Shown in pieces: positions 3,211-58,785 of a DNA stretch of 64,000 nt. This DNA comes from Blepharisma japonicum (lineage: Eukaryota > Ciliophora > Heterotrichea > Heterotrichida > Blepharismidae). The stretch lies in NCBI GenBank assembly GCA_949751835.1, contig CATKHK010000112.1, forward strand, positions 1 through 64,000. Direction: 5' to 3'. The notes under the pieces were generated by a model. That model worked only from the letters and a program-made list of their open reading frames with translations, was not told the DNA's origin and made no database searches. Made by a program: the position numbers and the translations under genes. Numbering within the stretch: the first letter of the stretch is position 1; each line of letters starts with the position of its first letter.

Positions 3211-3214
3211 ATTT

Positions 3215-4006
3215 TTTACATATCCTTTAAAGAGCATCTCCTTTACTTCTTTTATTAATCGCATAAATTGGATTGATTCTGGTTGCATCATTGTAATATT
3301 TCGCTGATTCTTCATATTTCTTATCATTTCCTAAATTAATTCCTATTTCATTGTATGCATCAGCTTCATTTGGATCTATTCTGATTGATTCTTTATAGCA
3401 GTCCATAGCTTCATCTCTTCTGCCTAAGTTTGATAAAGCATGTCCTTTATTTCTATAATAGCGAGCACAATTGGGATCGATTCTGATTGCATTATTGTAA
3501 TATTTCACTGCTTCTTCATATCTCTTATCATTATAATCCAATTTCATTGCATGCGTAAGCTTCATTTGGATCTAATCTAATTGCTTCATTATAACAGTCC
3601 ATCGCTTCATCTCTTCTTCCTAACAATTTAAGAGCATTTCCTTTATTTCTATAATAAAGAGCACGATTGGGATAGATTCTGATTGCATTATTCTAGCATT
3701 TCACTGCTTCTTCATATCTCTTATCATTTTTAAAAATTATTCTTATTTCATTGAATGCATGAACTTTATTTGGATTTAATCTAATTGCTTTATTAAAGCA
3801 ATCCATAGCTTCATCTTTTTCCCCTAAATCACTAAGAGCATTTCCTTTATTTGTATAATAAGTAGAACAATTGAGATTGATTCTGATTTCATCATTGAAA
3901 TATATCACTGCTTCTTTATGTCTCTTGTCTTTGTAAAAAACATTTCCTATTCCATTGTATGCAGCATCATGGTTTGGATCTAATCTAATTGCTTCATTAT
4001 ATCTTT
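3215..4006 (-). pseudogene. TPR unit B, broken
   Basis: About 790 bases of double TPRs on the minus strand, such as DPNCARYYRNKGHALSNLGR and NPNKVHAFNEIRIIFKNDKR. They are interrupted by an in-frame TAG near 3693 and a frame change near 3565, and begin directly against the 3' flank of unit C at about 4006. The N-terminal zinc motif is absent. This is a truncated tandem copy caught between two homologous 3' flanks. Confidence 0.6.
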
Positions 4007-4007
4007 T

Positions 4008-4130
4008 TGTTGTAAAAATTATCCATATAAACTAAAGTTACTGTTGCTAAATTGTTATTGTATTATTAAAATAAATTAGAATTATGCTAAATTGTTTGCT
4101 CTTTTATATAATTCATTTGCTTCTTATATT
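4008..4130 (-). repeat. TPR-gene 3' flank, copy 3
   Basis: Downstream (minus sense) of the long TPR frame ending at 4124. It shares the AAATTATCCATATAAACTA block and the terminal ATTCATTTGCTTCTT block with 3091-3210, with an insertion-rich centre. It borders the truncated unit B directly. Confidence 0.45.
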
Positions 4131-5446
4131 TTACTTATTCTTTCAAGAGCAAATCCTTTATTTCTATAATAAATCGCACAATTGGGATTGATTCTGATTG
4201 CATTATTGTAATATTTCACTGCTTCTTCATATCTCCTTTCATATTTTAAAAGATTTCCTATTCCATTGTAAGCAGCATCATGGCTTGGATCTAATCTAAT
4301 TGCTTCATTATAGCAGTCCATAGCTTCATCTCTTCTCCCTAAATTTGATAAAGCATATCCCTTATTTCTATAATAAATCGCACAATTGGGATTGATTCTG
4401 ATTGCATCATTGTAATATTTTACTGCTTCTTCATATCTCTTATCATTATAATAGATATTTCCTATTTCATTGTATGCACCATCATGGCTTGGATCTAATC
4501 TAATTGCTTCATTATAGCAATTCATAGCTTCATCTCTTCTCCTTAAATTTGATAAAGCATCTCCTTTATTTCTATAATAAAGAGCATAATTAGGGTCTAT
4601 TCTGATTGCATCATTGTAATATTTCACTGCTTCTATATATCTCTTATCATTGTAATAAATATTTCCTATTCCATTGTATGCACCATCATGGTTTGAATCT
4701 AATCTAATTGCTTCATTATAGCAATTCATAGCTTCGTCTCTTCTCCCTAAATTTAATAAAGGATTTCCCTTATTTCTATAATAAAGAGCATAATTGGGGT
4801 CTATTCTGATTGCATCATTGTAATATTTCACTGCTTCTTCATATCTCTTTTCATTATAATAGATATTTCCTATTCCATTGTAAGCAGCATCATGATTTGG
4901 ATCTAATCTAATTGCTTCATTATAGCAGTCCATAGCTTCATCTCTTCTCCCTAAATCTGATAAAGCATCTCCTTTATTTCTATAATAAAGAGCATAATTG
5001 GGGTCGATTCTGATTGCATCATTGTAATATTTTGCTGCTTCTTCATATCTCTTTTCATTTCTTAAAATATTCCCTATTCCATTGTAAGCAGCATCATGGT
5101 TTGGATCTAATCTAATTGCTTCATTATAGCAGTCTATAGCTTCATCTCTTCTCCCTAAATCTGATAAAGCATCTCCTTTATTTCTATAATAAAGAGCATA
5201 ATTGGGGTCGATTCTGATTGCGTCATTGTAATATTTTACTGCTTCTTCATATCTCTTAAAATTCTCAAAGATATTTCCTATTTTATTATAACTAGCATCT
5301 TGATTAACACCTAATATAGCACACAAGGATGCTGACCTGAAGTTATGGATTCCTTGAGTTGCTTCATAATGCCAAACTAAGTGCTCGCTGCACATATAAG
5401 CTTGCGGAGAAGTGCAATTGCATGAATATTCAACATTTTGACCCAA
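4124..5446 (-). CDS. Zinc-motif TPR-array protein
   Basis: About 440 residues ending at TAA. The N-terminal 35 residues hold a compact Cys/His motif: C-x-C, then AYMCSEHLVWH with further His residues. This resembles the B-box-like N-terminus of the zinc-finger genes at 6952-8640 and 9901-11373. The rest is about twelve TPRs arranged as six 68-residue pairs of consensus YNDAIRIDPNYALYYRNKGD / YNEAIRLDPNHDAAYNGIGN, giving a superhelical scaffold. The DNA repeats at a 204-base period. The start is unresolved: no ATG precedes the zinc motif in frame, the frame is open back to about 5582, and the position-5446 codon is TTG. Either a short upstream exon is missed or the 5' end was lost at the junction with the kelch relic beginning near 5490. 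Sure of the TPRs, unsure that the gene is functional. Confidence 0.6.
   Translation of the reverse strand: MGQNVEYSCNCTSPQAYMCSEHLVWHYEATQGIHNFRSASLCAILGVNQDASYNKIGNIFENFKRYEEAVKYYNDAIRIDPNYALYYRNKGDALSDLGRRDEAIDCYNEAIRLDPNHDAAYNGIGNILRNEKRYEEAAKYYNDAIRIDPNYALYYRNKGDALSDLGRRDEAMDCYNEAIRLDPNHDAAYNGIGNIYYNEKRYEEAVKYYNDAIRIDPNYALYYRNKGNPLLNLGRRDEAMNCYNEAIRLDSNHDGAYNGIGNIYYNDKRYIEAVKYYNDAIRIDPNYALYYRNKGDALSNLRRRDEAMNCYNEAIRLDPSHDGAYNEIGNIYYNDKRYEEAVKYYNDAIRINPNCAIYYRNKGYALSNLGRRDEAMDCYNEAIRLDPSHDAAYNGIGNLLKYERRYEEAVKYYNNAIRINPNCAIYYRNKGFALERISKI
4190..5290 (-). repeat. 204-bp tandem repeat encoding paired TPRs
   Basis: A block reading roughly GCATCATTGTAATATTT recurs near 4200, 4406, 4608, 4814, 5018 and 5222, a period of about 204 bases or 68 codons. 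Neighbouring units differ at few positions, so the copies have either arisen recently or been homogenised. Units A and B to the left carry more divergent versions of the same period. Confidence 0.75.
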
Positions 5447-5489
5447 TAACTGTGGATTGCCTGCCAGGTTAAATTTTTCTAGCGAAAAC

Positions 5490-5930
5490 CTGCGAGACTG
5501 AGTATAAAACCAAAATAGTGTATCTATTTTAACAGAAGTGTCTATTGCTTTGAAGGATTTATAAAAAGTGCTGTTAATCTATCAAATAGATTTGATTTGG
5601 ATAAAAATCGATGAATAAAATTGAGTCCATGCCGCACTCAGATATGCAATGCACTAGTGTTGCATTTAATGGGAATATATTAATTTGTGAACTTAAGACA
5701 ATTATAATTTTGCAATGTTCAATTGATCTTGACTCTTTCTCGGCAATTCTTTATAAATTTGCAGTAAGGAAAAGAAAAATCATGATAAGTGCAGAGGAGA
5801 GACTGTACTTAATCGAATGTGGTAAAGGTGGATTCATCTATGAAAGCGAAATTGGAGATGAATATGCTTGAAAACAAATAATAAGCTCGATAATTATTAG
5901 ATGGCGTCCTTGCCAAATTTATTATTCATA
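5490..5930 (+). pseudogene. Kelch-type propeller gene relic, C-side piece
   Basis: Plus-strand translation starts in one frame with SVYCFEGF followed by RFDLDKNRWIKLSPC, where W is TGA. This is the classic pattern of a kelch blade. It then moves to a neighbouring frame (5611-5871) that continues with blade-like ICELKTIIILQCSIDL and RLYLIECGKGGFIYES. It matches the C-terminal blades of the zinc-finger/propeller genes to the right in general style, but on the opposite strand. No complete gene remains. It abuts the 5' end of the zinc/TPR frame. Confidence 0.5.
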
Positions 5931-6951: not shown

Positions 6952-8640
6952 TTAGAATTCAATCATGCATTTCTTTTTCATATCAAATTTATATCAATGA
7001 CTTTTCTTGGATGAACAGTAATAAGTAGAATCTCGGATTTTTAAATAAAATGCTCCATCATTATACACACTATATTTCAAAAAATAGCATTTTAATGGCG
7101 CTTTTCCTATTTCAGACCAAATATATTCATTATTTTCTTCACATTCAAAAATTGATCCATAATTTTCAAATATATATGCTCTGGAACAATAAGAAACTAG
7201 GAATTTTCAATCCTCAAATCTCGAATCTGCATATGGAATCACAGATCAACTGTCTATTGTTAAATCAAATTTAACTATTTTTCTTTCATATAATATGCAG
7301 GATATAATGCTTTTATTGAATAAAGCTAATGAATTCGCTTCAAATTTTACAAAATATTGATATTTATTCATAGTGTATTTTACCAAATCGACTTTGTATA
7401 TGAGATTCAAATTTGTTTTCTTATTTCCTAATTGCAAATCAAGAAAGTAAATACAATTTTCATGATATAAAAAATTCCCTGCAATCAATTTATTATTTGG
7501 GCTTTTCAATAATGACATAAATTGTAAATTTGCAAAAATTTTTTCAAAGCATGCTTGAGTAGTAAAGATTGAACTCGTTTCAAGCCGAATTGGCATATAA
7601 TTGCGCTTTAGGCTAGAATATTTACTATGCATATAACTTATTTTCTTTGATGATAAAAATTTATTTAAAAAAATTGACTTAGTGATATTGTCATTTATCA
7701 AGAATATGCATTGATCAATTTCAGAATTTATGCTTTTTTGTTTATTAATCCTATGAGCTTTCTTTTTATCTTTTACTAAAATCGACAATAAAAACTTCTG
7801 CATATGCTTTATTTGGCAAAATAGATTATCTGTCGAAGATGCAGGTATTTCAAGTAATGATAAAAATCTCAGTGCTTCTTTTAGTTTAGATATGCACATT
7901 TCTAATCAATTGATCCATATACTTTCAGTTTGTAATTGCTCTAAATAGTCAGTCGCTTTCTTATAAATTTTATTACATTCCTCAACAAAATTCTCATATT
8001 TTGATTTAAATGATTTGCTCAATATACAAAGTTTATTAATTTCATTAATATTGCCAATCTCCATCTGATAGGATTGAAATTTTATTTGAAGTTCTTGTAT
8101 AATTTTTTCATAGTAGTTTTTAAGCTCATAAAATTTATTTTTGCGAATAATTTCTAATTCTTTTTCTACCTGCATTGATATTTCAGATATTTTTTTATTA
8201 AATTTTTTAAGGTATAAATTAATTCTGAAGTAAACTCAGCAGTAGTTCATACATTTTTCTCTTATATTCTGAATTTTCTTCATCATATCTCATATAAATA
8301 TTTCTAAATTTGTTACATTTTTTGCTTTTAGAACTGATATAAAAATTTTGTTGATTTTTTCGATTCCTTTGTCAATTTCTTTAGGACCGTTGTATTCCCA
8401 TTTATCTGGCTCAATGCTAATCTCTTGAATTTTTAATTTTTTCTTTTCAAGCTTAGCTTTTGCATTAAGAAGCATTTCAAGAATTGCAATGATTTCATGT
8501 AGACTCCTGTGCTCATTATTACAATCTTTTAGATGATAATTGAAATGGTGTGCACAGAAAAAATTATCTGATGATAAATAACTACAAATATAGATAACTT
8601 TAGAGTGGCAGGCTGGGATAAAACACTGATAGGCTTCCAT
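6952..8640 (-). CDS. Zinc-finger / coiled-coil / kelch-like propeller protein (copy Z1)
   Basis: ATG at 8640, TAA at 6952-6954: 562 residues in one frame with several TGA codons read as Trp. Residues 1-45 hold a Cys/His motif with C6, C11, C19, C29, H32, H36, C40 and H44, the same spacing as in the 9901-11373 gene and B-box-like. Residues about 50-240 are Lys/Glu-rich and probably coiled coil (KAKLEKKKLKIQEI). From about 260 the sequence becomes a beta-propeller-like region with strands such as RKIVKFDLTIDSW and GSIFECEENNEYIW. It ends with a conserved terminal module containing YNDGAFYLKI and the basic FDMKKKCM. The layout recalls TRIM/kelch-type cytosolic adaptors, but no RING is present. 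The function cannot be named. It stands tail-on to its paralogues on the same strand. Confidence 0.8.
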
Positions 8641-8699
8641 TTTATGAATCTACAATATTTAAATGTCTTAAAACCTTTGAACGACTAAGACAGATAATA

Positions 8700-9640
8700 A
8701 AATTATGCATAAATGTGCAATGCTTATCTATATTTAGATTCTTAAAGAATTAAGTCATATAATTTCTATCCTGATCTTATTCAAACAATTCATAGCTTTC
8801 TTCAAAATATCATTACATTTTCTGCATACAGCTCATAACTTGATTTAAATTTATTACTTAATTGGCAAATTATGATAAAAAATTGTAGGCTAAATTCTAT
8901 ATTTTATTAGTTTTTAGTACCAAAAATATTGTGAAATACGGAAGCAAAATATTTGGCAAATTTAGAACTTTCAATTTCCTCTGATTTTTTAGCTTTTCTT
9001 TTACTTCTTGCTTAATTTTTCAAATTTAGAACTTGCATAACTCAAAAAAATGATTATTGTAAACAAGCTCTACGTCCTTCTCAGCCTGCATAGAAATTTC
9101 AGGTATTTTTTTCATTTTTTTAATCAAATCTATTATTCTATAATAAATCTAGCAGCATTTTCTGCAATTTTCTTTTATTTCTTCAATTTTCTTAATAGCA
9201 TCTATATTGATAAGCCAATTTCAATTATTGACTTAGCTTTTATAACTATGAAAATAATTCCTGAAAGGAAGCTATTCCTTTATCAACTTCTTCTTGTTCT
9301 TATGGAATAATAACTCATCAGAATCAGTAATGATTGATAAAATTTTTATTTTTCTCTTCGAGTTTTCTTTTTGCTTCTATAAGCATTCCGAGGACTCCCA
9401 TTTTTTTCATTAAGGCTTGATGCAATCTTTGAGATGGATATTAAAATGAATATCATAGAATTAAGATATTGAAAGAGAATTATTTTTTTCGTTTAGGAAA
9501 GGAGAGAATAGATAGTGTAGAAAGTTTTAGTCTCAGTAAATAGCGTTATCTTGTAAAGATATGCAGCTGCATATAAAGATGATTTGAGAGCTGAAGCCTG
9601 AAATAAAACACTTGCAGTTTTCCATCTATAAATATTAGAA
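8700..9640 (-). pseudogene. Zinc-finger/coiled-coil gene copy, broken and truncated
   Basis: Starting near 9630 the minus strand reads MENCKCFISGFSSQIIFICS, the family N-terminus with its first cysteines. Later come a Leu-Lys-Asp-Cys phrase equal to HLKDC of the intact copies and the Glu/Lys-rich coil. Parts correspond in order to Z1, but in several frames. The propeller half is missing: the relic stops near 8700, just upstream of the intact Z1. It is one of at least three decayed members in the cluster. Confidence 0.65.
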
Positions 9641-9900
9641 GTTTGCAATGAAATTTTAAATGGTCAGATAATTAAAATAATTATTTAAAACCCAAAATAT
9701 TTTGGTATTATTATTTTAGTTCTCATTAGACTATATAGGATCAAAATTAGGTAAAGAAGCATATATAATTTATCACTATCTCTGACAGTATTTTATTATC
9801 AATACATTCAATTATTAGCCATAGTAATAGCTTAATTTTTTCTTCTTTGATAATACTTATCATAAAAATATTGATTAGCTAAATTAAAAAAAGTATATAT

Positions 9901-11373
9901 TTAATAACTTTTAATTTTACCTAATCTACTCATTTTTTTCTTTTTGAGTTCAAATTTAAACCAACAACTTTCTTCATAAAAGCAAGCAGACATTTTTTTA
10001 TAGCCCTCTTCTTCAATATTTAAATAAAACGCTCCGTCTTTAAAAACTTTATATTTCAAATCTCCCCATCTTAAATTTACCATGCCAATTTCATTTCATT
10101 TGTATTTATCATCTGCATCACATTCAAATATTTTGCCTCTACTTTCTAAAACATACAATCTCGATTCATAAGGAAGAAGAATTTTAGGTTCTAAGTTTTC
10201 ATCATGTGCATAAAAAAATTTAGAAAAACTGTCTATCAATAAATCAAATATTACTATTGCTCTGGTTGCTTTTATGAGAAACAAAATATTTGTTTTTACT
10301 TGCACAATTGAACCCTTATCAATTTCTATTTTCAATGATTTATAAACAGTCAATTTTTTCGTTGACAAATTGAATTTTTTCATACTTAATAGCCCCAATG
10401 GAGAGTATTGGTAAATCACTTGTTCATCGAAACTATTGAAGAGATAAACGGCATTTTCATGTAATAAAAATTCCATCCTATCATTAGGCGATTTTTTTGA
10501 AACTTTTTCTTTTTTTTGGGTCTTTAGATCTATAATATAAATGGCATTATATCTGGAGACAAATAATTTGCCATTAGGAAGCTTTAAAATAGGAATAAAT
10601 ATAATTTTTTCTAAAATTTCGTAGCTCTTACTAAAAAGATTATAATTTTCTGGATCTTTTAGCTTTTTAATATAATTGTCTAATAAATTAAGTCATTGAT
10701 TTTCAACTCTCAAAGTTTCTAAACAATCCATTATTATTTGATGAGTTTTGTTTCAATTTTCATTAAAGTGCTCATAGATTGATATAAATTCTCAATCAGA
10801 GTTGCAAAAGCTACTGCTCCATAATTGGGCTAGGATGATATTAAGTTTTTTTTGATATTCTTCCTTTAACTGTAAAATATCTTTCTCTTTATACTTAAAA
10901 AAGCAATCATAATAAATCGAATCAATTTCATAATTAAATTCCAATTGAATTTTATATAAAGATTTAAATCAGCAAAATAATCTGCATTTTTCTTTTATTT
11001 TATCAATTTGACATGTAACATCTCGTGTCGACGAATTAGGACTCTTTTTAATTTCCGCTTGTAAAATATCTATAAACAATTTATTAAAGTAAGCTAATTC
11101 TTTGTCCATTTCTTCAATCCCTTTTCCTACCAATTCATCGAATTCGAAATTAATTGATTTAAGTTTTCTTTTTTTCTTTTCAAGCTTGAACTTGGCTTGA
11201 CAAAGTTCAACAAGTATTTCAATTACTTTTATAAGATTTTCGTGCTGATTACTACAATCTTCGAGATGGGTTTTAATATGTTCTTCACAGAAAAAAATAT
11301 TTGTATTAAAACCAGAGCAAATATAAGCAACTTGTGAAATACAATTCGGAAGAGAGCATTTAAAGTTTTCCAT
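9901..11373 (-). CDS. Zinc-finger / coiled-coil / kelch-like propeller protein (copy Z2)
   Basis: ATG at 11373, TAA at 9901: 490 residues in a single frame with TGA as Trp (for example NENWNKT, VENQWLN and CNSDWEF contain TGA). The N-terminus, MENFKCSLPNCISQVAYICS, has the same C6-C11-C19-C29-H32-H36-C40-H44 pattern as the neighbouring paralogue. A basic helix KFKLEKKKRKLKSI follows, then a predicted coiled coil to about residue 230. Propeller-like strands start with LPNGKLFVSRYNAIYIIDL and ALFxxD-type repeats. The terminal module has FKDGAFYLNI and FKFELKKKKMSRLG. It is about 70 residues shorter than Z1, mostly in the coil. Intact and possibly expressed; the substrate or partner is unknown. 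Confidence 0.82.
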
Positions 11374-12679: not shown

Positions 12680-15600
12680 TTAATTATTAAATTGACTACT
12701 TTGCTTCTCAGTGCTTGGTGAGACTTTTGCCAATGAAGCTTTTGATTGCTTTCCAAAAGAAAAAGCAAACTTAAATAGAGCGCTTGTATCTAGACCCTTT
12801 TTTCTAAACAATAAGCTTGGATATTTTTTCTTTTGAACGACTAATCCAACTGCAATAATAATACCCCATCCAATTAATAAAATTACGAAAAGTATTTCCT
12901 GTCCAGCTTGAATCCCTAATCCAATGGTCGAAAGCAAAGCAAGCCACAAAACTCCAATCAAGCTCAACCCTTCCCACCAGCTAAATCTTGCGTAATTATA
13001 AGGCTTGATCTTGAAAATGAAAATAATATATATGATCAAAATGACCATAAATAAAATTCCATGAGTTAGATCTTGAGCTCTTTTAACTGTTTTATTCATC
13101 ACAATTAAAGCAATCTGAGTGACAGTTTTTATCATTAAGAATAAAGGAGAAGCTTTTACGTGAAGCATTGGCTGCAATTCTTGCCAGAGAGGTCGACAAA
13201 AGACAGCTAATGGCTCATACAGTAGTAAAGCAAAAACTGAGATTATTGCATACACTAAATGCTTGTCTTTTCAGCAAAAATAATAGCAATCTTTGGCAAG
13301 AAAGCTGTCTGTTCATTTGTCTCCAATTGATTGATCACATAAAAAGATATCCAAACATATAGAGACAAAAGGAATAAAGCCAAGATTTCCTAAAATTGGC
13401 ATTAAATAGTCAGCAAGGATATCAAGATATCTATACAGGGAGACAGAGGGCCATTTTTCGTCAAGTCTGAGCAAAATAACAGCACATAGAATAACCCATA
13501 AAGCAATCCCCGCGTAAACAAAGTCAACAACAATTCAGAAAACACCATTTTCAAGCTTTATAATATTTCCTAAATCTAGAGAAAAAATATCACTAAAATT
13601 GGTTCAGACAGAGCTGATGGACGATGCACTTGGCCCCATTGATGAAAACTGAAGAAATTCAATCCCAATTGTAATTCCTACTATAGCATCTTGTAGGGAA
13701 ATTTCTTCTTTTTCTGTTAGTTCATCCACAGTGATATTTCACCATTTTTTCCATATAACAAAAGTTATAATCAAGGTAATAATTGCTACAGAGAAACATA
13801 TTCCAAAAAGCAGACCTCTGCCTCGAGAGAACGTTTTTACTTGTTTATCAGGAAATGGGCATTTACCATTTTCATTTCTTAAATCGCTAGGCTTTAGGGT
13901 TGTTCCATCTGGATATATCATTGGATTAGAAATACTCAAAATTTGAGTACTAAATGGCCTACATTTTCCAATAAATTGTATAATGGCATTTCCAGTGCTA
14001 TCAAGCTTATTTGTGTCTATATCTAATCCATCCATAATTCTATCATTGCTACCTTTTTCAATTGTAACACCTCCAGTGCACCCAGAAAACTGCTGAACTC
14101 TAATGGCAGCTTCTAATTTCATCGGATCTCTATAATCCTGACCTCGATTAATCATATAATTTAATGCATGGGCTATAAGTGATGCTCCGTCAAAATAAAA
14201 ACACGCAAAAGCATTAGGAGAAGAACTATATGTGCTAATAAGCCTATTTTTAGCTTCAGTTCCAATTTGTCCGACCCAATTTTGCCCTGCAAGTCTTAGC
14301 ATTGGGATCCCTATTTCAATTCTTTTATATAAATGCGTGTCATTGGTTCCAATAAGTGTTAAAAAATCTGGAAAAGTGGTGCATATCATAATATCTCCTT
14401 TTCTCATACCTAAATCATAAAGCATTTCCAAAACATAATTACACATAGGGCATTGAATCATTGTTACCAGCAGCCTTGCCTGAGAATCGATAATACTTTT
14501 AATTGCATTTGTATAATTCTTTAATCCCTCCCTATCAAGATTTGGTGGGATCACTCGAGTATTTTCAGGGTTTATAAGATCAAGTCCTTGACTATCAGCA
14601 GCTTGCCTTAAGTAATAATACCCAGATTGCCCCCAACTATTATTTTCATATAAAAATGCCGCTTTTGTCCATCCCATCGCCCTTAATAAAACAGGGAATT
14701 TTGTATATATATAAGAATTCGATACACCAACTCGGGTGTACATCGGATATTTTACAGTCGAGTTTAATGATACATCTGAATTTGTACAGCCTACAATCGG
14801 AAAAGTGACATTTAATTTTTTAAATGTCTGCATTGCTCCAATTGCCATTGCGGATGCAAATGAAGATATATGTGCTACGCCAAACTTATCCTCATCTTTT
14901 TGGAAACAATTATAAGCGAAAGTTGAGTTATAAACGGTAGCTCCACAGTCAAAATTAAAAAATGCTAGTTGAAAGTTTGATAATATTGAATTTCCTTCAT
15001 TTATTCAGTCCTTCGCAATATATGCGCCTCTAGAGCCAATCAGCCCACTTGTTGCTGGGCTTGAATTCGGATTAGTTGAACCTGCATTTATGCTTAATTG
15101 CAGGACTTTTTTGGTTGATACTGGAATAATGCTTGAATTTCCAGGGAATATTAAATTATTCACGAAAACACGATTATTTTTTATAACTGAGCCAACAATA
15201 ACGCGTTTACCTTGCTGGATGTTTACTATTGAAAACTTGTCTTGAAAAAAGTGAGTTTTAAGCTTAGAATTGAGCTCCATAACGAATTCCTGAGAAATTC
15301 GGTATGAAGTGCTATCTAAAATATAAGATATAAAACTCCGAGCAGAAATTTTAAACGATTCTTCTGGAGAACTTGCGAATTCTTTGCCAAATTCTGTTAT
15401 TATTAAAGCCCCATCAGCCACAGAGCTATAACCACTTTCCTCATCTAAAATAATTCCACTTCCAGTGGTCAAAAGTTTAATTGAAATCAAGGAATTTTGT
15501 AATTTTAAAGATTCTGACGAGTGCGTGAATATATAATACTGAGTCGCTCCGAGACGAAAGACAACTTTATTTATAAGGTCCTCTATACTTGATTCTGACT

Positions 15601-16141
15601 CGATAGTCAAAAAAGTTAAATATGGTGAATATTTAAGCATTGTTTCTTTCAAGTCATAATTTTCTCTACTGCAAAATGCGATTCCTTGAGTTCAGTTGAA
15701 ATATCGCACTACTTCTAGATACGCATTTAGCTCGTCATCTCTTGATGCCCTGATCGTAAAAGTATGTTCGTCAAAATATTTGAGTTCGTTTTGATAAGTT
15801 AGGTGGACCAAAGAATGGCTTTTGCAGGCTTGCTGGATTGAGTATTGAATGTCTTGGTCTATTGCTAAATCAAGAACCATCAGGGAGTTTGGATATTCTT
15901 CAATGCAATCTTCTATATCAGAGAATAAGCATTTATGTCATTCAACTCTTGAATTGAATTCTTGGGCTATCTCCAAAAGTGAGGTCTCATTCATTGAGCT
16001 AGTATGCGAAATTGATGGACGTGTGAATACTATTATGATTTCCAGTGAATTCGCATAGTGAAGTATTATAAAACCAAAAACTAAATTTCAGAAACTCCTT
16101 TGCCAAAGAGGCTTCTTAAATGAAATTTGATAAAATTTCAT
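12680..16141 (-). CDS. Double-VFT polytopic receptor R1
   Basis: ATG at 16141, TAA at 12680: 1153 residues without a break when TGA is Trp. A hydrophobic signal segment (FGFIILHYANSLEIIIVF, about residues 22-40) precedes a first ANF-receptor-like module. The second module, from about residue 365, carries the family's key phrases: LSINAGSTNPNSSP, the FNFDCGATVYN-type Cys motif, MGWTKAAFLYENNSWG, FSGCTGGVTIEKGSNDR and YPDGTTLKPSDLRN. About nine membrane segments follow, then a basic tail (KKYPSLLFRKKG, FSFGKQSKASL). R1 is among the more divergent members: FSGCTGG replaces FYGCTGE and the tail lacks the SSPRK motif. It is cut off from the rest of the array by the kinesin gene, so it may be an early-diverged end copy. 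Ligand unknown; a plasma-membrane sensory role is inferred. Confidence 0.88.
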
Positions 16142-16439
16142 TGATTTTAAGGCATTTGCTATCGATCAAAATGGTGGCAACACTTAATCATAATTAAAAA
16201 AATCCTGGATTTAATCTTATTTATAGACTTGCTGTTGAAAAAATATTTTTTGTAAAAAATTAATAATTATTTTATTAAATATATAATTATACATATCATT
16301 ATTGAATTAGTATTTACAAAAATTTAAAATTACGATTATTTTATAATTTCAAATGCTTTGAAAGTTTTTGCTAAGATAAAAAATTGCTTAAATAAGTTTT
16401 ACTGCATAGCCTAAGACTTTTATTGATGATATCATTTTT
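16142..16439. other. AT-rich spacer
   Basis: Very AT-rich run upstream of R1 containing long A/T homopolymer patches; no gene or clear motif. It should hold the R1 promoter, but nothing specific is identifiable. Confidence 0.3.
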
Positions 16440-17113: not shown

Positions 17114-20100
17114 TTAAAAATTAATATCCCCCATTCTTGAATCATTGGGTCTTCCACCCTTCATTTGCTGGATGACATTCTTTAGTTCCCCAATCTTTCT
17201 CTGATAGTTCTGTATCGATGAATTCATATGCTCATTCAAATTCTTTAGCTGCTCTTCAGCCATTGTAGCTCTTATGCTCAATTCACTTCTTTCCTTTTCC
17301 AGTTTTCTGAGCACATCTTCAAGATAAGTCACTTTCATCTGAAGATTTTTAGGCTGTGAGCTAGTCGCTGGGCCCGACGCTCCCTGTTCATACTCCATTA
17401 ATTTTTTCCTCAGTCTTTCTATTTCTCCATACAAAGACTGATCATTTGAAGGGATTCCTTGATTACTGCCTCTGGCTCGACTCTCCCTCAATTCTTGATT
17501 AAGCCTTCTATTTTCTTCTCTAAGCTGGTTTCTTTCTTTTCGAAGGACATCTACATCATAATTTCCACTCCCAGGCCTGGATTGACTTACAGGAGCTCCT
17601 TTCAAGTATTCAATTTCATTTAATAGCCTTTCTTGAATTCCGGTGCCTCTATTTCCATTGGCAAGTCTTGAAAACTGCTCATTATTTCCTAGAAGTTTGT
17701 TCTGCAGTGTTTTTACTTCTTGGTCAAGGCTTGCATTTCTGATTCTCAGCTTTTCTAGTTCTTGATTTAGGGCTCTTTGAGCAATAGGCCTGTCTTCATC
17801 TTCTAATAATATTGGTGGTGGAGCCACCAAGACCTGCGGCATTGGCTGCCCTAGAGGAGCCCAGTCCTCAGCTAAGCTTTTCAAGCTCCTCGCATATGCT
17901 TTCAGTCCTCTGATTATTTTGTTTTTGTGGTCGCTTTCGGCCAATTCTTTATTGAGTTTGTCTCTCAGTTCTGCTTCTTGTTCATTATAAGACCTTATCA
18001 TTTCTTCTCTTGCATTAGTGACCCTGTTATCCAAAGGATCAACCCCTTCTTTCATAGTTTTAATGAGTTTTGCTCTAAAATTGGCTCTCATATCGTCAAT
18101 TTGCAAATGAAGCCTTTGGTTTTCATTGCTCATCAAATTGTCATGATTTTGGTAGTCACTTAACAGTTCTTCTAGCTCTGCAACCTTCCTTTGAGCTATT
18201 TTCAGCTGCCTGGTAACAGAAACAATATCAGAAAAATTCATATCGTTTTGCTGGGCTAATTGGCCGACTTTGTTTTCAGCTTCATTTATTTTCTTGTTCA
18301 TTTGCTTGTCTCGCTTATGGTCAGCGTCAATATAGCCTCTTTCCAGCTCTACTTTACGGTTATCAAAATCAACTTGCTGCATTTCAGCATTTAAATCGTA
18401 TTTAATCAGCTCGGATTTGAGCCTCTCCACTTCTGCTTTGGCATTTAATAAAGAATCCTCAAGCTCTCTGTTTAATTTTCCTAGTTTTTCTATTTCTGCA
18501 AGCAGTTTATTTTGCTCTAAAGAGATGTTTCCTTTGATTTTTGCATACGCATCAGAATCGGCTCTTAGGGCCTTGTTTTCGTTTGCTAAGTTTATTATTT
18601 CTAAGCTCAGATTTTCATTTCTAACCTTTTCTTCATTAAACTCATTTGACAAGTTCAAATAATTAGTTTTAAGTGCCACAAATTCTATTTCCAAGTCTCT
18701 TTTTTCTTCTAGTACCTTTTTAAGCTTTTCTTGCATTTCATTAATAGCCTGCAGCGCTTTTTCTTGCTTCATATTGGCAGCCAGGACTTCATTTTCTGCA
18801 TAAAGTACTTTTGAGTTCACATCAAGATCTCCTTTTCCCATTTCATGCTGCAGTTTCGCATTTTCCATCTGCAATTCAATAAGTGCTTTCCCAATATCCA
18901 GCCTTGCTTCTTCTGATTTAATCAATTCTTCTTGCAGATCTGCTTTTTCCTTGATTAATTTGTTATATGCCGCTTTAAGATCTCTCATCCTCAGAATCAG
19001 CTGTGATTTTTCATCAGCAATTCTCAGTTTGTGCAGATTTCCATCAATCAGCTGCTTTTCTAAGTCTGTAATTTGCCCTGAGCCTAGAGCTGAGACGCTG
19101 AGGAGGCTTATTTGGTTCATCAAATTCATGATCTCAATTCTGTATTTCCTGAGTAAGCCTATTTGTCTGCTATCATTAACCACTGGGAAATTGATAGTAG
19201 CCTTGAGCATTTTCATGTAATTAAGTACAAGCAAAGACCCTATGTTGTCTCCATATTGCAAACAAGTCAAGCACATTGATAAACAATTGCCTGCAAAGAT
19301 GTCTTTAAGCAGATGGGTTACATTAGACCCATCATACCTTATATAGTCTTCTTTATCTTGGCTGATATTTCGTATGAGCTCCCCTATAGTTAAAACTGCT
19401 TTGTTCAATGTATTTCCTTCACGAATCCTTAATGTCTCTGCATCTTCATTCAGCTTTTCCATCCCAGGCAGGTCTACAAAGTTCAACCTAGAAACCAATA
19501 CATTTGTCTCCTTTGAAACCTGGTCCACTGCAATCTGCAAAATTTCGACCGTGAAAAAAGTGGTCGCTTTATCACTTAGAGGCCCGAATTCATTAGTAAC
19601 CTGAGTTCTATTTCTTCTGGCTAATGTGAACATATCAATCAGCTCATGAGAGCTGTTGCATTGGAGCCAGCTTGCATTTTTCACGGCTGGGCCTTCTCAT
19701 TCACTCTGCACAATATGCAGAGTCCCTAGGATTCTTGAATTGGACTGGATCAATAAGTCAGAAATTTCTTCATCGACGATTTCCAAGTAGCGAATTCTGA
19801 CTGAGTATGAATAAGCTTGAGAGCTCCCTGAAGAAGGCCGCCCTTGGTTGAGTTTGTACTTTTTTTCGTCGAGAGATTCGAATAGAGACTGAACGAAGTA
19901 GTGGATCAAGCCGGAGTCGGAGCCTTCACCCTCGAGATTGAAGGTTTTGCCTGATCCTGTCGTTCCGAAGCTTACAATGCCTACATTGACACCTTCAAGA
20001 ATTGCACCTAAATAAGCTTGGCAAGAATTTTCGAAGATTTTGTAGAGAGGAGCTCCACCATCATAAATATCCCCACATTCGAATTCTTCACGGACTCGAT

Positions 20101-20248
20101 TATTTGCGTCGAGAACACCGATCTTGGTTCCTGTTATTTTTAAGTCTTCTCTGAAATAGCCTGCGTTAGGCTTGATTTTAATGACTGATTGGATTGGAAC
20201 ACCAATTGCTAACTGTTTCAAGTTGTGTGCTGTATTTGGGGCTGCCAT
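17114..20248 (-). CDS. Divergent kinesin-like protein with long coiled coil
   Basis: ATG at 20248, TAA at 17114: 1044 residues. A single in-frame TGA (Trp184, at 19694-19696) splits it under the standard code. Residues about 1-390 are a kinesin motor fold: P-loop GTTGSGKT at 95-102, and switch II DLPGMEK at 259-265 in place of DLAGSE. The helix-4 phrase is NKAVLTIGELI at 282-292. Switch I is degenerate: the usual SSRSH is replaced by PLSDKATTF near 223-231. From about 400 to the end it is predicted coiled coil, with a Pro-rich hinge APPPILLEDEDRP near 650. A motor-first, coil-after layout is typical of N-kinesins, but the missing switch residues suggest weak or absent ATP turnover and a structural role. 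Codon use looks less AT-rich than in the flanking receptors. It may act in cilia or cortex, which is inference only. Confidence 0.88.
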
Positions 20249-51265: not shown

Positions 51266-54200
51266 TTATGGGCTTGGATCTTCAATTTTTCGCGGAGACG
51301 ACATTGATGTCCCACTTGGTACAATTTTTGATAAGGCGAGTTTTGAGCTCTTACCGAAAGAAAAAGCAAATTTAAATAGATTGGATGCATCTTGACCTTT
51401 TTTACGGAATAGCAGACTTGGGTATTTCTTATGCTGAACATAAATTCCTATTAGAGCTAAGATTATCAGTCCGAATATTAAAATAGATGTCAAAATAAGT
51501 GGATCATCACCACCATTTTGTGCAATTATTGAGAGAAAAGCTAATCAGACAACTCCAATTGAAACTAAAGTTTGCCACCAGCTGAATCTTGGATAGTTAT
51601 AGGGTTTAAATTTAAATAAAAAAATAATATAGAAAATCATCACTGTCATAAATAGAACTGCATGAAGTGTGCTTTGTGCTCTTTTTACTGTCTTATTCAT
51701 CACAATTAAAGTTATTTGAACCACTGTTTTTACCATCAAAAAGAGTGGAACTGCTTTTACATGTAAAAGAGGCTGCAGTTCTTGCCAAAGAGGTCTACAG
51801 AATACAGCAAGCGGCTCATAAGCTATTAAAGCAAACACAGACAAAATTGCATAAGCTAAATGTTCACCTTTTCAGCAAAAATAGTAGCAATCTTGAGCAA
51901 GAAAACTATCAGTAAAATTATCTCCAATAGACTGATCACATAGAAAGATATCAAGACAAATTGAAATAAAAGGAATAAAACACAAGTCACCTAAGATAGG
52001 CATAAAATAGTCAGCAAAAGCATCCAAATTTCTAAAAATAAAATTTGTTGGGAATTTTTCATCTAGTCGTAAAAGTACAACTAAGCAAAGAATTACTCAT
52101 AATCCTATTGAGCCAAAAACAGCATTAACAATTATTCAAAAAATCCCATTCCGTAGCTTCAAAATATTGTCCAAACTGAGAGAAAATAAACTATTTATTC
52201 CAGCCAGTGTAGAGTTAATAGGTGAGAAGTCAGGGCCCATGGACGAAAATTGGAAAAATTCGATAACAATTGTTGCTCCGACAATAAAATCTTGCATAGA
52301 AATTTCTTCTTTTACCGTTAATGGGGCAACAGTTATCTTTCACCATCGTTTTCATATATAAATAGTAACAAAGAGGGAAATCAAGGCAACACTGAAGCAG
52401 ATTCCAAAAACTAAAGCTCTTCCTTTCTCAAATGTTTTTATAAGTCTGTTAGGAAATGGGCATTCATAATTGGTGTTTCTCAAGTCAGTTGGCTTTATAG
52501 TTGACCCATCTGCATATACCAAAGGTTCTTCAATTTTTATAAGCTGTGTGCTTTGTGTCTTGTACTGCCCTACAATATAAGTTGTTAAATTTCCATATTC
52601 ATCTAACTTGTTCGCAAAAATTTCAAAGACTTGGAGAATCCTGTCATTTGATCCTTTCTCAATAATAACCTCTCCAGTGCACCCATAAAATTGTTGATTT
52701 CTCATAATTTCATTTAGTTTATTAGGATTGGTATAGTCGAGTCCTCTGTTTATCATATAATCCAAAGCATAAGCAATCAAAAATACTGAATCAAAATAAA
52801 AACAGCTATAAGAATTCTTTTGGTTTCCATAAGCAGTTGAAATTTTTGATAATGCTTTTGCTCCAAGTGGTCCAACTCAACTTTGGCCATACATAGTTAT
52901 AATTGGAATTCCAGTTTCATATAATTTATATTTGTACAGGTTGTCATATCCTATAAATGGTACAATATCTGTGAGTGATGACAAAATAACTAGATCTCCT
53001 TTCCTTAGTCCTAAATCATAAAATTCTTCAAAAATGTAATAAATAGCTGGGTATTGTACAAGAGAAATAAAAAATCTTGTCTGAGTATCAATAATCTCTT
53101 GGAGTATATATGAATAATTTTTTATTCCAACTCTGTCGAGATTTGGAGGTATGATTCTGCTGCTTTCTGGATTGGCCAACTGGATTTGATTATTTTTAAC
53201 GCTTTGCTGCAAATAATAGTAAGAAGATAATCCCCAGGAATCATTTTGGCAAAGAACTGAAACTTGTTGCCATCCCAAGGCTCTGATAAAAATTGGAAGC
53301 AATGAGTACGCATAGGAATTTGAAAGCTGGACCCTCATATACATTGGGAAAGTAGCTGTTGAGCTTAATCCTGGATCTCCATTTGCTGCACTTACGATTG
53401 GGAATGATAAATTGAGCTGTTTAAACAAAACCATTGAGCCAGCTGCCACAGCTGAGCTTAATGCTGATACATGTGCTCAACCAAATTTCTCCTTATCTTT
53501 TAAATAGCATGCCTTAGCAAAAGAGGCATTAAAAATTGTTACTCCGCAGTCGAAATTAAAAAATTCAATTTGAAAATTCGTAAGCAGACCAGAGTCACCT
53601 TCGTTGATAACGTCTTTAGCTGCATATGAACCATATCCTCCAACTAATCCAATAGGAATGGCTGGCCCTATTGGATTTGTAGTGCCTGCTTCAATACTTA
53701 ACTGCAAAATTTTCTTCTCTGACTTTGGAATTTTAGTGGAATTTCCAGGAAATATTATATTTCCGAATATTGATAATTTTTCATTATAAATTTCTCCAAC
53801 AATTGCTCTTCCACCGTTTTGAATATTAACTAAAGAAAAGTCTTTGCTGCTATAGTAATCTTTTGATATAAATTCCAATTGAGAAAGGATTTCAAGTTTA
53901 CTTTCGGCTTGAGTATGATTTAAGAGCTCAGAAATTATGCTTTTTATTGATGATTTCATATAGTTTTCATCTGAAGTACTGAATTCTTGTCCTTTAACAG
54001 TTAATATTAGAGCTCCATCAACTATACAATTATATCCACTTTTTTGGTCTAAAATAATCCCATTTCCACTTGATAAAAGTTTAGAGGATATTAAAGCCTT
54101 TTGCAATTTGTAGGATTCTGTACAGTTCATAAAAATATAATACAAAGTAGCACCTAAAGGAGTAATAGCTCTACTAACTAGTTCATCAATATTTGCTCCA

Positions 54201-54736
54201 GACTCGATTGTTAAATAATTTAAGCTTTCTGAATAATTTTTTAGGTTTTCTTTTAAAGTATTTGTAATTCCATTATTTGTAACAAGCCCTTGAGTCCATC
54301 CAAAATAGCGAAGGGCAGAAATAAAAGCATTGATTTGATCTAAAGGAGATGGAGTTATTGAAAAAGTTAGCTGATCAATATAATCCAGCTTATTTTCAAA
54401 CACCAGATGAGGAATTTTCCTCTCTTCACATAATTTTGAAATAATATACTGTGATTCAATGCGATCTGTTAGGTCTAAAATAAGCATAGAGTTTTCATAT
54501 GTATTAAAACAATTTAACGCTTCTAGGTATTCACAATTATGCCACTCCACAAGTGAAATAATATCTTCTGGCAAGTTTAAATATGATTTTGCACCCCAGA
54601 CTGTGCTGTTTCTATCATAGATCACAATAACTTCTAAACAGCTACCAATATTCAATAAACAAATAAATAAAATCAATTTTCATCACAAGGGCCAATGAAT
54701 TTTAGAATTTTTTGGATAGTCTTTCAAATAGGACAT
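51266..54736 (-). CDS. Double-VFT polytopic receptor R9 (reference member)
   Basis: ATG at 54736, TAA at 51266: 1156 residues, used here to map the family. The signal peptide is about 18-37 (WWKLILFICLLNIGSCLEVI). Binding module 1 is about 35-345: CEYLEALNCF, LDLTDRIESQYIISKLCEER, FGWTQGLVT, and the closing INIQNGGRAIVGEI-type strand with FPGNSTKIP. Module 2 is about 350-745: SIEAGTTNPIGPA, a Cys pair in FDCGVTIFNASFAKACY, LGWQQVSVLCQNDSWG, FYGCTGEVIIEKGSNDRIL. Then comes YADGSTIKPTDLRNTNYECP. Hydrophobic segments lie near 772-794, 817-836, 866-887, 908-930, 958-980, 994-1014, 1024-1044, 1053-1072 and 1082-1100. The tail from 1101 is basic (HKKYPSLLFRKKGQD) and ends SSPRKIEDPSP. An odd number of segments after a signal peptide places the tail in the cytosol. 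Confidence 0.9.
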
Positions 54737-54855: not shown

Positions 54856-57800
54856 CTATTTTTCTGGATCCGCAAGCTCATGCAATGAGCCTTTAATTGA
54901 CGAACTTGGCACAATTTTAGCCAGCGCAATTTTCGATTGTTTCCCAAAACTAAATGCAAACTTTAGCAAATTTGCAGTATCATTACCTTTTTTCCTATAT
55001 AGTAAACTAGGATATTTTTTTACTTGAATATATATCCCAAAACTCGCAATAACCCCCCAGCCAATACACAATATTACAAATAAAATTATTGACTCCCCTT
55101 TTACCCATATTGCCAATATTGATAAGAATGCAAGCCAAACTACCCCAATTAAGCTTATACCTTGTCATCAGCTAAATCTTGGGTAATTATAAGGCTTAAA
55201 TTTCATAATAAAAACAATGTAGCCTATCATAATAATTAAAAATAAAATTGCATGAGTTGTGCTTTCGGCTCTTTTTATGGTCTTATTCAAAACTATAAGT
55301 AAAACTTGGACTACAGATTTTGTCATTAAAAATAGCGGAGTAATTTTTACGTGTAATAAAGGCTGAAGCTCTTGTCAGAGAGGTCTGCAAAATACTGCGA
55401 GAGGCTCATACGATAATAAAGCTAAAAACGAAATTATAGCGTATACTAAATGCTTGTCTTTTCAGCAGAAGGAATAACAGTCTTGGGCTAGAAAACTCTC
55501 AGTGAAGCTGTCACCTATTGATTGGTCACATACAAAAACATTTAAACACATAGAAACAAAAGGAATAAAGCATAAGTCGCCTAATATCGGCATCATATAA
55601 TCAGCTAAAAGGTCTAGATATCTAAAAACCAATACAGAAGGGAATTTTTCATCTAATCGAAATAGAACAACTAAGCATAAAACCAGCCAGAGCCCAATAA
55701 ACCCAAAAACAGTATCAACTACAATTCAAAATACCCCATTCTCCAGCTTTATAATTTTATCCAAACTTAGCGATAATGAGTTACTAAAATCAGCTAAAAT
55801 CTCACTGATCAAGCTAAAATCAGGCCCCATTGATGCAATTTGGAAAAATTCAATACAAATTGTGGCAGATACAATAAAATCCTGTAAAGAAATTTCCTGT
55901 TTTTCTTTTAATGGTTCTATTGATATATTTCATCATCTTTTCCATATATAAATAGTGATAATAACTGAAATCAAAGCGACAGTAAAACAAATCCCAAAAA
56001 CAAGGCCTCTACCTTTGGCAAAAGTCTGAATTTGACTATCAGGGAATGGACATCTGTAATTGGTGTTTCTTAAATCAGAAGGTTTAAGTGTGGTGCCATC
56101 TGCGTATACCAATGGCTGTTGGATAATAAAAATCTGAGTACTATAGGGTTTAAGCTGTCCGACAACATAAGTTGTGACATTTCCTGAAGCCGATAACTGA
56201 TTTGCTGGTATTTGGATGGCGTCTATTATCCGGTCATTGCTGCCTTTTTCTATTGAAACCTTCCCTGTGCAGCCTGAAAACTGTTGGTTTCTCATGGCTG
56301 ACATTGCTTTGCTAGGGTCAGTAATATCTAATCCTCGGGTTATCATATAATCTAAAGTATATCCTATCAAATAAGCTCCATCAAAGTAGAAACACGTAAA
56401 AGTGCTCGGCGTAGACTTATAATTTAAAATAACCCTTGAATAAGCCTCTTTTCCTATTTCTCCAACCCAGTTTTGGCCATATACACTCAACATTGGAATT
56501 CCAATCTCAAAGGCTTTATATGAGTACAAAAAATCATAGTCAAAGAAACTCAAAATATCTGCAACTGAAGTAAGCAAAATTAAATCTCCTTTTCTCAGCC
56601 CCAAATCATAAAACTGCTCCATTATATAATAGCACATAGGATATTGGACTATATGAATAAGAAACCTCGCCTGTGAATTTATGATTGTCTGCAAAAGATT
56701 TTTATATTTCCCTATAGAAGTCCTATTCAGATTTGATGGGATTGCTCTTGAGTTTTCAGGGTTTATCAGCTCTAAATCATGGTTTTTCACACTTTGTAAC
56801 AAATAATAGTACCCTGATTGTCCTCAGGTATCATTTTGGTATAGAACAGCTGCTTGTTTTCAGCCCATTGCTCTTATTAATAACGGTATCATAGAATATG
56901 CTAGCGAATTTGACATCTGTACTCTTACAAACCATGGAAAAGTGGCTGTTGAGTTTAAAGAAGCATCTGCATTGGCACAGCCTACTATAGGGAATTTTAA
57001 ATTCAGCTGCTTAAAAGATTTCATTGACCCAATCGCCATAACTGACCCTGGAGCTGCTATATGTGCCAATCCAAACTCGTCAATATTTTTTGTATAGCAA
57101 GCATTTGCAAAAGTCGCATTATGGCAAATGCACAGCAGCTGCATTCTATTGGAAATAGGCTCCATTGCAACTGAGATATTTAAATGTAAAAATATTAATA
57201 GGCAATTTCCCAATATATTTTGGCTTACAAATTATTATTTTATATTCGGGGAGATCAGTATAGGTAGTGGCATGCAAGGCTGGTCTAGAAAGGTGTTTGA
57301 ATAATATAGATAGTCACCCCGCAGTCAAAATTAAAAAATTGAACCTGGAAATTTTGTAAAATTCCAGTAATTCCTTCATTAATCATGTCTTTAGCTACAT
57401 AGGTTCCAAAAGATCCTAAATATCCAACAGTCATTGGAGTTGAATTGGGGTTCGTAGTTCCTGCTTCAATGCTTAAATGCAGGATTTTTTTTGCTGATTT
57501 AGGAATTGCTGTTGTATCTCCTGGGAACGCCAAATTTCTAAAAATTGTAACTTTTTGACCTATAATGAAACCGACGATTATTCTTTTTCCACTTTGAATA
57601 TTTATGAGTGAAAAATTGCTTTTTGCGTGATGATTTTTTAAAATAGTATTAAAATTTTCATAGGTATCTGTTGAATAATTTAATAAAAGATCTAGTGTTT
57701 TTTCCAAAGAAATTTGAAAATACTCTTCCTTTGAAGATACAAATTCATAGCCTGTCTCTGTAATAATTATAGATCCATCATTTGAGCAATTATAGCCACT

Positions 57801-58496
57801 TTCCTGGTCTAAAATAATCCCATTCCCATCAGCTAAAAGTTTTTTCGAAACCAAGGAGTTTTGCAATTCTAATGATTCAGAAAATTCCATAAAAAGATAA
57901 TAAAGTGTCGTGCCCATAGGCATAATAAATCTACTTACCAAATCATCAATTATTGCTCCAGATTCAATTACCAAATAATTAAATTCAGATGAAAATTTTA
58001 AAAAATCATTTTTTAAGTTGCTTTTTTCTATATCAAAAATTACAAGCCCTTGGTTTCAGCCAAAATATTTTAAGATTGCTAAAAAATTTTCTGCTTTATC
58101 TGAATAAGAAGGGATCATATAATAGGTCATGTCATCAAAATAAGAAAACTTATTTTCGAATGCTAAATGGACTTTTTTATATTGTTTACAATATTCAGAA
58201 ATAATAAGCTGCAGATCGTCTGATAAATCTAAAACAATTAAAGCAGATGGATATAAGTCAAAGCAATTTATAATTGATGAAGAATTGCATATATGCCATT
58301 CTATAGTTTGGCCAAATTTTTCAGTAATTTGCAAAATGCTATTTAAATTATAATTTGGATTGCGATTGGGATGAATAATAATTGCTTCGAATGAAGAGCA
58401 AAACCTTACTAAAAACGCCAATAAAAATATTCTTGAAAAATTTGGGAATCTGTGCAAATTTCTAGATATGGCTGGAGTTTGTGTGGTATAAACCAT
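54856..58496 (-). CDS. Double-VFT polytopic receptor R10, interrupted by a TA-bounded insertion
   Basis: ATG at 58496, TAG at 54856. The frame is continuous except for a 185-base insertion (57120-57304). Without it, the gene codes 1151 residues in one frame. The insertion falls inside the conserved phrase DCGVTIYNATFANACY of the second binding module, where all paralogues are uninterrupted. If retained, translation stops at residue about 404, after only the first module. R10 is divergent: it starts MVYTTQTPAISRNLHRFPN before the signal segment (IFLLAFLVRFCSSFEAI). The first module has QNSLVSKKLLADGNGIILDQ and the second FSGCTGKVSIEKGSNDRII. Its tail, SSIKGSLHELADPEK, is unlike the others. It shares FSGCTG with R1, hinting at an older pair. 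Only 119 bases separate its stop from the R9 start. Confidence 0.85.
57120..57304. mobile_element. TA-bounded 185-bp insertion, candidate internal eliminated sequence (IES)
   Basis: The left border is GCAT-TA-TGGCAAATG and the right border GAATAA-TA-TAGATAG. A TAT direct repeat occurs at 57120-57122 and 57305-57307. Deleting one repeat plus the interior leaves GCATTATAGATAG, which codes the conserved ATCTATAAT (Ile-Tyr-Asn) of the paralogues on the minus strand and restores the frame (185 = 3x61+2). Neither end gives GT...AG on the coding strand at any allowed placement, so a spliceosomal intron does not fit. Ciliate IESs of the TA type leave exactly one TA. Ends show only weak inverted similarity (TATGGCAAATGCAC versus TATTATTCAAACAC). 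No coding content is seen. It implies either a germline sequence, an IES retained in the macronucleus, or a variant. Confidence 0.75.
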
Positions 58497-58785
58497 AATG
58501 TTAATGTATAATCAATAATAAATATCCCAATTTATTAATGTTTTCATTAGAACACGAATGGGCTATTATTAGAATATCTCTTGAATTCATTATTTTTATA
58601 TAACTTATTAAAAAATAATAAATTAATGATTTTTATAATATAAAAAACCAATTTATCCATGAGGAATATACTTTACTAATATCATGATAAATTTTATTCG
58701 TTATCTTATCGAGTACCTGTGTGCATGAATTTAATAAAAAAAGAAATTATATTTATATTAGAAATATTCATTTTTTCAAGTACTG

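What the first reader, a model, noticed from the sequence alone, without database searches (positions are those of the whole stretch)
57120..57304. Precise TA-bounded insertion in R10: a caught internal eliminated sequence
A 185-bp segment with a TA/TAT direct repeat interrupts a conserved phrase. Its exact removal, leaving one TA, restores frame and sequence shared by all paralogues. No GT-AG borders exist. This is the hallmark of programmed DNA elimination; its presence means the source is germline DNA or an IES that escaped excision in part of the macronuclear copies.
Basis: partly seen in the sequence, partly recalled or inferred. Interest (0 to 1): 0.85.

Follow-up and report, generated by a model that had tools for sequence, protein, structure and literature searches.

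The report
TA-flanked insertion breaking a receptor gene
In DNA that looks like that of a Blepharisma-like ciliate, one of a dozen similar receptor genes is interrupted by a 185-base insertion that resembles a germline segment normally cut out of the working nucleus, although only sequencing reads could prove that it is ever cut out.

Summary
Window 57120-57304 (185 bp) interrupts R10, a minus-strand receptor gene (58547-54856). Ten of ten full-length paralogues lack it, and removing it restores one 1168-codon frame and the shared phrase. A TAT direct repeat flanks it; random insertion gives a TA-containing repeat 3.2% of the time.

The genes read TGA as Trp and end in TAA/TAG, as in Blepharisma (PMC9942806); the species is not identified. 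TAT/ATA is among the commonest terminal repeats of Blepharisma stoltei IESs; length and GC also fit (PMC9942856). The insert lacks splice borders, and heterotrich introns are 15-16 bp.

'Germline DNA' is contradicted: at B. stoltei density about 35 IESs would be expected in the array genes; one is seen. Best reading: an IES-type insertion retained, wholly or partly, in a macronuclear-type sequence. A plain recent gene-breaking insertion is the main rival. R10 has no other stop or frame break and probably has not drifted neutrally beyond about 2%. Terminal inverted repeats, hairpins and repeat copies were sought and not found. Excision is untested. New member of a known kind; modest interest.

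The parts
57120..57304 (-). 185-bp insertion (gene strand starts TTATTC, ends GCCATA in this register); 34.1% GC
   Evidence: absent from 10 of 10 full-length paralogues; removal restores the frame; GC
57120..57122 (+). left copy of the direct repeat TAT
57305..57307 (+). right copy of the direct repeat TAT
57305..58547 (-). R10 coding sequence before the insertion (414 codons and one base)
   Evidence: open under TGA=Trp; 42-46% identical to the ten full-length paralogues; no Pfam match
54856..57119 (-). R10 coding sequence after the insertion, to its stop codon; contains an ANF_receptor match
   Evidence: open under TGA=Trp; 61-65% identical to paralogues; PF01094 E=7e-15
57285..57304 (-). 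stretch of insert read in the upstream frame up to a TAG stop, which would leave R10 as a 420-aa product if nothing is removed
51266..54736 (-). R9, an intact paralogue used as reference (1156 aa, ANF_receptor E=7e-22)
12680..16183 (-). R1, neighbour of R10 in both unrooted trees (support 0.997 and 1.000), uninterrupted

Best explanation
The segment is an IES-type element: a TA-bounded stretch that entered the germline copy of R10 and is removed, or was until recently removed, precisely at the TA during macronuclear development, most likely by the domesticated PiggyBac homologue that is the candidate IES excisase in Blepharisma. The window is a macronuclear-type sequence of a Blepharisma-like heterotrich in which this one IES is retained, in part of the copies or in all of them. 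Where it is retained, R10 would make a 420-aa truncated product.

Shown: the insertion, its repeat, the restored frame, TGA as Trp, and no comparable insertion in the ten full-length paralogues. Inferred: that the host is a heterotrich ciliate, that the segment is germline-limited, that it is excised, and by which enzyme.
For: The repeat TAT contains TA (3.2% by chance). Among 39,799 B. stoltei IESs, 30,212 are TA-bound, and TA, TAT/ATA and TATA are the commonest repeats, especially up to 228 bp; median length is 255 bp and GC 33.3% (PMC9942856). The insert is 185 bp and 34.1% GC. Its GC is above that of the DNA between listed genes (mean 25.4%; 6.4% of 978 overlapping 185-nt windows reach it).

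About 70% of B. stoltei IESs are intragenic. Removal restores 1168 codons. R10 has no other stop or frame break; under a simple substitution model 1.9% neutral divergence would already give three expected stops. So the gene worked until recently, which fits removal at DNA level, but fits a recent insertion too. The code fits: 109 in-frame TGA in 12,576 codons of 11 genes, and 17 of 30 TGA columns also hold TGG.
Against: No read evidence of excision. TIRs are common in Blepharisma IESs, but here none was found beyond TAT/ATA. Most sequence in IESs of 115 bp or more is repetitive; here no clear copy exists in the window, only one weak AT-rich 33-nt match that 1 of 200 shuffles equals. No hairpin (z 0.11).

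Residual retention in MAC-enriched B. stoltei DNA is at most 0.02, so an IES in an assembled sequence would be unusual. R10 keeps fewer of the others' invariant residues than nine of the ten other paralogues, so relaxed constraint is possible. 185 bp is not a published length peak (153, 174, 228, 389), although most IESs fall outside peaks. The ciliate assignment rests on code and composition alone; no marker gene was looked for and no related record was found.
Confidence: 0.55

Rival explanations
1. Plain recent insertion that broke R10: a TA-targeting element or repair-filler fragment that is a permanent part of the macronuclear sequence and is never excised; R10 is a young pseudogene.
For: The TPR stretch of the window (about 1.4-4.0 kb) shows stops and frame breaks as in decaying genes, so broken genes seem to occur here. 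No IES-specific sequence feature was found in the insert. R10 is one of at least 12 similar copies and may be dispensable; it keeps fewer invariant residues than nine of ten others.
Against: It needs a recent event, since R10 has no second lesion. A TA-containing repeat would arise by chance in only 3.2% of insertions that do not target TA; a TA-targeting element escapes this objection.
Confidence: 0.28
2. Spliceosomal intron of unusual length, removed from RNA rather than DNA.
For: Seven frame-keeping, stop-free pairs (six GT-AG, one GC-AG) lie near the site, for example a 179-nt GTGACT...ATGCAG.
Against: None of the seven keeps the conserved VTIY-NATF phrase. The four registers of exact removal lack GT-AG, GC-AG and AT-AC borders. 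About 95% of heterotrich introns are 15 bp and the rest 16 bp (PMC11441545 passage; PMC9942806 section 5). None of ten full-length paralogues has an insertion here.
Confidence: 0.06
3. Assembly or contamination artefact: a stray germline read or chimeric join written into the consensus at one place.
For: The insertion is single, and micronuclear contamination of the library is named as a possible source of apparent retention (PMC9942856 passage).
Against: The borders fit to the base and preserve the phrase, which a random chimera would not do. A stray true micronuclear read would still make the segment an IES. Not testable here: no reads.
Confidence: 0.1

Closest known systems
TA-bound intragenic IESs of Blepharisma stoltei (PMC9942856)
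   Same: TA-containing direct repeat of a common type (TAT/ATA), similar GC, length in the published range, inside a coding sequence, exact removal restores the frame, UGA=Trp code
   Different: sits in a gene array otherwise free of such insertions, so apparently macronuclear; excision not shown; not at a published length peak; no inverted repeat or repeat-family match found (published IES sequences not available here)
Residual TA-indels (occasionally retained IESs) of the Paramecium macronucleus (PMC3464196)
   Same: TA-bounded segment in a macronuclear sequence
   Different: there the retained form is the minor one in reads and absent from the assembly; here it is the assembled form and the retained fraction is unknown; different ciliate class
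Tc1/mariner-type and MITE insertions at TA
   Same: a TA-containing target duplication is compatible
   Different: no terminal inverted repeats found, no Pfam match in two open frames of the insert, 19-base core of the BogoMITE inverted repeat absent from the window

Membership tests
Blepharisma-type IES | bounded by a terminal direct repeat, usually containing TA | tested here: met
   TAT at 57120-57122 and 57305-57307; chance 3.2% for a TA-containing repeat
Blepharisma-type IES | precise removal restores the coding sequence | tested here: met
   joined flanks give 1168 codons and the phrase shared with 10 of 10 full-length paralogues
Blepharisma-type IES | length and base composition in the published range | tested here: met
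   185 bp, 34.1% GC against median 255 bp and 33.3% GC
Blepharisma-type IES | terminal inverted repeats (common but heterogeneous, not required) | tested here: not met
   no inverted pair joins the two ends among the 25 of 30 pairs shown; ends mirror only as TAT/ATA. Not a defining feature: no single motif is shared by Blepharisma IESs
Blepharisma-type IES | germline-limited: present in the micronucleus and absent from most macronuclear copies | not testable with these tools
   no reads or second assembly; the array looks macronuclear, so the assembled form retains it
Blepharisma-type IES | excised during development by the candidate PiggyBac-derived excisase | not testable with these tools
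   needs developmental reads or excisase knockdown
Blepharisma-type IES | host is a ciliate with Blepharisma's code (UGA=Trp, UAA/UAG stop) | tested here: inconclusive
   code fits: 109 TGA in 12,576 codons, ends 8 TAA and 3 TAG; 12 of 30 TGA columns are Trp in all ten paralogues and 17 of 30 also hold TGG. Species and phylum not identified directly
Spliceosomal intron | GT-AG, GC-AG or AT-AC borders at positions that restore the protein | tested here: not met
   four registers; the seven alternatives lose the conserved phrase
MITE or DNA transposon | terminal inverted repeats | tested here: not met
   only TAT/ATA mirror each other at the ends; 19-base core of the BogoMITE repeat not found in the window with up to 3 mismatches

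The most novel reading that the evidence does not exclude
R10 is a developmentally switchable receptor paralogue: a long, inefficiently excised IES leaves the gene on or off in different macronuclear lineages, so DNA elimination diversifies which receptors of a gene array a cell displays. This would be analogous to IES-based control of mating-type genes in Paramecium (recalled, not looked up).
Probability: 0.05. Interest if true: 0.7.

Novelty: new member of a known kind. Interest (0 to 1): 0.33.

Why it matters
If the IES is partly retained, R10 is a natural single-locus assay of excision efficiency in a heterotrich, with ten intact paralogues as internal controls. It would also illustrate how a failed IES can silence one member of a receptor family. 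If it is fully retained, it marks the step by which an IES becomes an ordinary gene-breaking mutation.

Tried and rejected
Germline (micronuclear) source of the window: contradicted by insertion density. About 35 IESs are expected in 39.5 kb of array coding sequence at B. stoltei density and one is seen; Poisson P of one or fewer is 3e-14 (ten-gene alignment gaps). This assumes B. stoltei density, and only array genes were checked for insertions.

Karyorelict source (Loxodes type): Loxodes has UGA as its only stop codon (table 27; PMC11441545 passages), whereas here 11 of 11 genes end in TAA or TAG and long frames are open with both read as stops (the genes were delimited under table 4). Other hosts with UGA=Trp, ciliate or not, were not excluded.

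Hairpin: DNA folding z-score 0.11. Repeat family: best match of the insert elsewhere in the window is 33 nt at 9705-9673, AT-rich (BLAST E 6e-5 with the low-complexity filter off), equalled by 1 of 200 shuffles; not pursued as a homologue. Protein content: two open frames of the insert (60 and 52 aa) have no Pfam match at E up to 10. BogoMITE inverted repeat, 19 of about 30 bases: 0 matches with up to 3 mismatches. Telomere repeat, two units: 0 matches with up to 3 mismatches.

Relatives elsewhere: an R9 protein scan matched peptide patterns at 3 stretches of viral contigs and 7 of genome contigs, none confirmed as relatives. Exact patterns gave none. These collections hold viruses and prokaryotes, so the absence says little. 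No whole genome is held for the window.

Tiny introns as proof of a heterotrich: inconclusive. Two similar 15-nt GT...AG stretches lie near the ends of TPR genes; in the second the frame is already broken before the stretch. A scan for frame-rescuing 15-16-nt introns gave 4 hits against 2-5 for five control motifs. Splicing a 16-nt candidate upstream of the kinesin start gave no sign of a further exon.

First protein alignments misplaced the end of R10's N half; the site comparison rests on BLAST coordinates.

Full report
What is there. The window carries an array of related genes on the minus strand, with a kinesin gene between the first and second. Read with TGA as tryptophan, ten run full length, listed at 1142-1167 aa. 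One, R10, is split into two open frames, 57285-58547 and 54856-57213, and a twelfth is cut by the window end. Sixteen open frames, thirteen of them array pieces, were compared all against all (the printed table was cut at 120 rows). R10's two halves match the ten full-length paralogues and meet at paralogue residue 398-403 in nine and 418 in R1. The 185 bp between them, 57120-57304, are absent from ten of ten. Joining the flanks in a script gives 1168 codons ending in one stop, with the phrase FNFDCGVTIYNATFANACY.

Borders. TAT stands at both ends, so four equivalent registers of removal exist. On the gene strand their borders are TT..TA, AT..AT, TA..CA and AT..CC; none is GT-AG, GC-AG or AT-AC. 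In a search 60 bases to either side of the upstream border, and from 75 inside to about 55 outside the downstream border, six GT-AG pairs and one GC-AG pair kept the frame without a stop, and none kept the conserved phrase. For 100,000 simulated insertions of window DNA into the ten full-length genes, 3.2% have a TA-containing repeat and 2.0% a TA-containing repeat of three or more. This is suggestive, not overwhelming, for one event picked out by eye. In the TA-bounded register both ends also fit the Paramecium consensus TAYNR (TATTA and TATGG, read); given TA ends this happens about once in 16, and the consensus does not hold for Blepharisma, so no weight is put on it.

Host. In eleven genes (ten receptors and a kinesin) there are 109 TGA, 90 TGG and no TAA or TAG codons in 12,576, and the genes end in 8 TAA and 3 TAG. 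The genes were delimited under table 4, so absence of internal TAA/TAG follows from that choice. The independent support is that frames of this length are open at all, and that of 30 alignment columns with a TGA in the ten receptors, 12 are Trp in all ten and 17 also hold TGG. B. stoltei reads UGA as Trp and is 66% AT (PMC9942806 section 5). Loxodes uses table 27 (PMC11441545 passages). Neither species nor phylum was identified directly: no genome is held, and no relative was found in viral or prokaryote collections.

Germline or soma. B. stoltei has 39,799 IESs on a 41-Mb somatic genome, about 70% of them intragenic (PMC9942856). At that density 62 would be expected in 64 kb and about 35 in the 39.5 kb of array coding sequence. 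The ten full-length genes align with internal gaps of at most 4 residues, plus a 14-residue gap at the N terminus, where R1 is longer, and up to 13 at C termini. R10's insertion is thus the only one of its kind seen. So the window is macronuclear-type, if the species resembles B. stoltei in this, and the insertion stands in the assembled form of a macronuclear-type sequence.

Is R10 alive? R10 has 1167 tested codons without a stop. A random substitution makes a stop in 4.6% of cases, so about 65 neutral substitutions (1.9% divergence) would already give three expected stops (simple substitution model, indels ignored). Codon-position counts against columns invariant in the other ten show constraint: N part 13/113, 12/174 and 7/19 changes at positions 1, 2 and 3; C part 28/319, 17/458 and 14/77. 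Against this, R10 keeps 70 of 78 and 257 of 278 invariant residues, fewer than nine of the ten others; only R1, its neighbour in both trees, keeps fewer. R10 belongs to a diverged lineage that stayed coding until recently at least. That fits DNA-level removal, and fits a recent breaking insertion as well.

The insert itself. It is 34.1% GC, like coding DNA of the window (mean 32.9%) and unlike DNA between listed genes (25.4%; 6.4% of 978 overlapping windows reach it). B. stoltei IESs average 33.3%. There is no hairpin, no terminal inverted repeat beyond TAT/ATA, no Pfam match for two of its open frames, and one weak AT-rich match in the window. TIRs are common in Blepharisma IESs, and most sequence in those of 115 bp or more is repetitive, so these negatives count somewhat against an IES.

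Interpretation. A TA-containing direct repeat of a common Blepharisma type, exact restoration of a constrained gene, composition and length all fit an IES. The published intron sizes (15-16 bp) make a 185-bp intron improbable. What is not shown is that the segment is ever excised. In MAC-enriched B. stoltei DNA residual retention is at most 0.02, so presence in an assembled sequence would need inefficient or lost excision. The authors describe excision as a continuum rather than all-or-nothing. A plain recent gene-breaking insertion is the serious rival; the TPR stretch suggests that decayed genes exist in this DNA. For Paramecium it is stated that TA-indels cannot be considered IESs without further experimental support (PMC3464196 section 12); the same caution applies here.

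Papers. PMC9942856: abstract, part 1 of 3 of the Results, sections 15 and 23 and passages. PMC9942806: section 5 and passages. PMC11441545 and PMC4967479: passages. PMC3464196: section 12 and passages. Others appeared only in search listings. Supplementary files were not read. Whether this insertion is already listed among published B. stoltei IESs was not checked.

Noticed in passing
12680-64000: Array of at least twelve minus-strand genes of about 1150 aa (ten full, R10, one cut by the window end). R9 and the C half of R10 match ANF_receptor (other copies not scanned); R9 has about eight hydrophobic segments after it and weak PDB matches to plant GLR3.4 and metabotropic glutamate receptors. 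Ligand unknown.
   Followed up: partly
1442-5578: TPR-repeat genes with repeats of about 204 bp; the stretch below about 4.0 kb shows stops and frame breaks as in decaying genes.
   Followed up: partly
4120-4134 and 3205-3219: Two near-identical 15-nt GT...AG stretches (GTAAAATATAAGAAG, GTAAAAAATAAGAAG) at similar places near the ends of TPR genes; candidate tiny introns, not proven.
   Followed up: partly
9673-9718: AT-rich stretch between genes with a 33-nt, 85% match to the insert (57210-57242) and a second, weaker match in the other orientation; 1 of 200 shuffles as good as the best.
   Followed up: partly
17114-20248: Kinesin motor gene with a DUF4472 domain on the minus strand, lying inside the receptor array; a 16-nt GTAAG...AG stretch (20276-20261) lies just upstream of its ATG.
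   Followed up: partly
6952-11373: Two open frames of 562 and 490 aa (6952-8640, 9901-11373) whose N termini look alike by eye (cysteine- and histidine-containing), without Pfam match.
   Followed up: no
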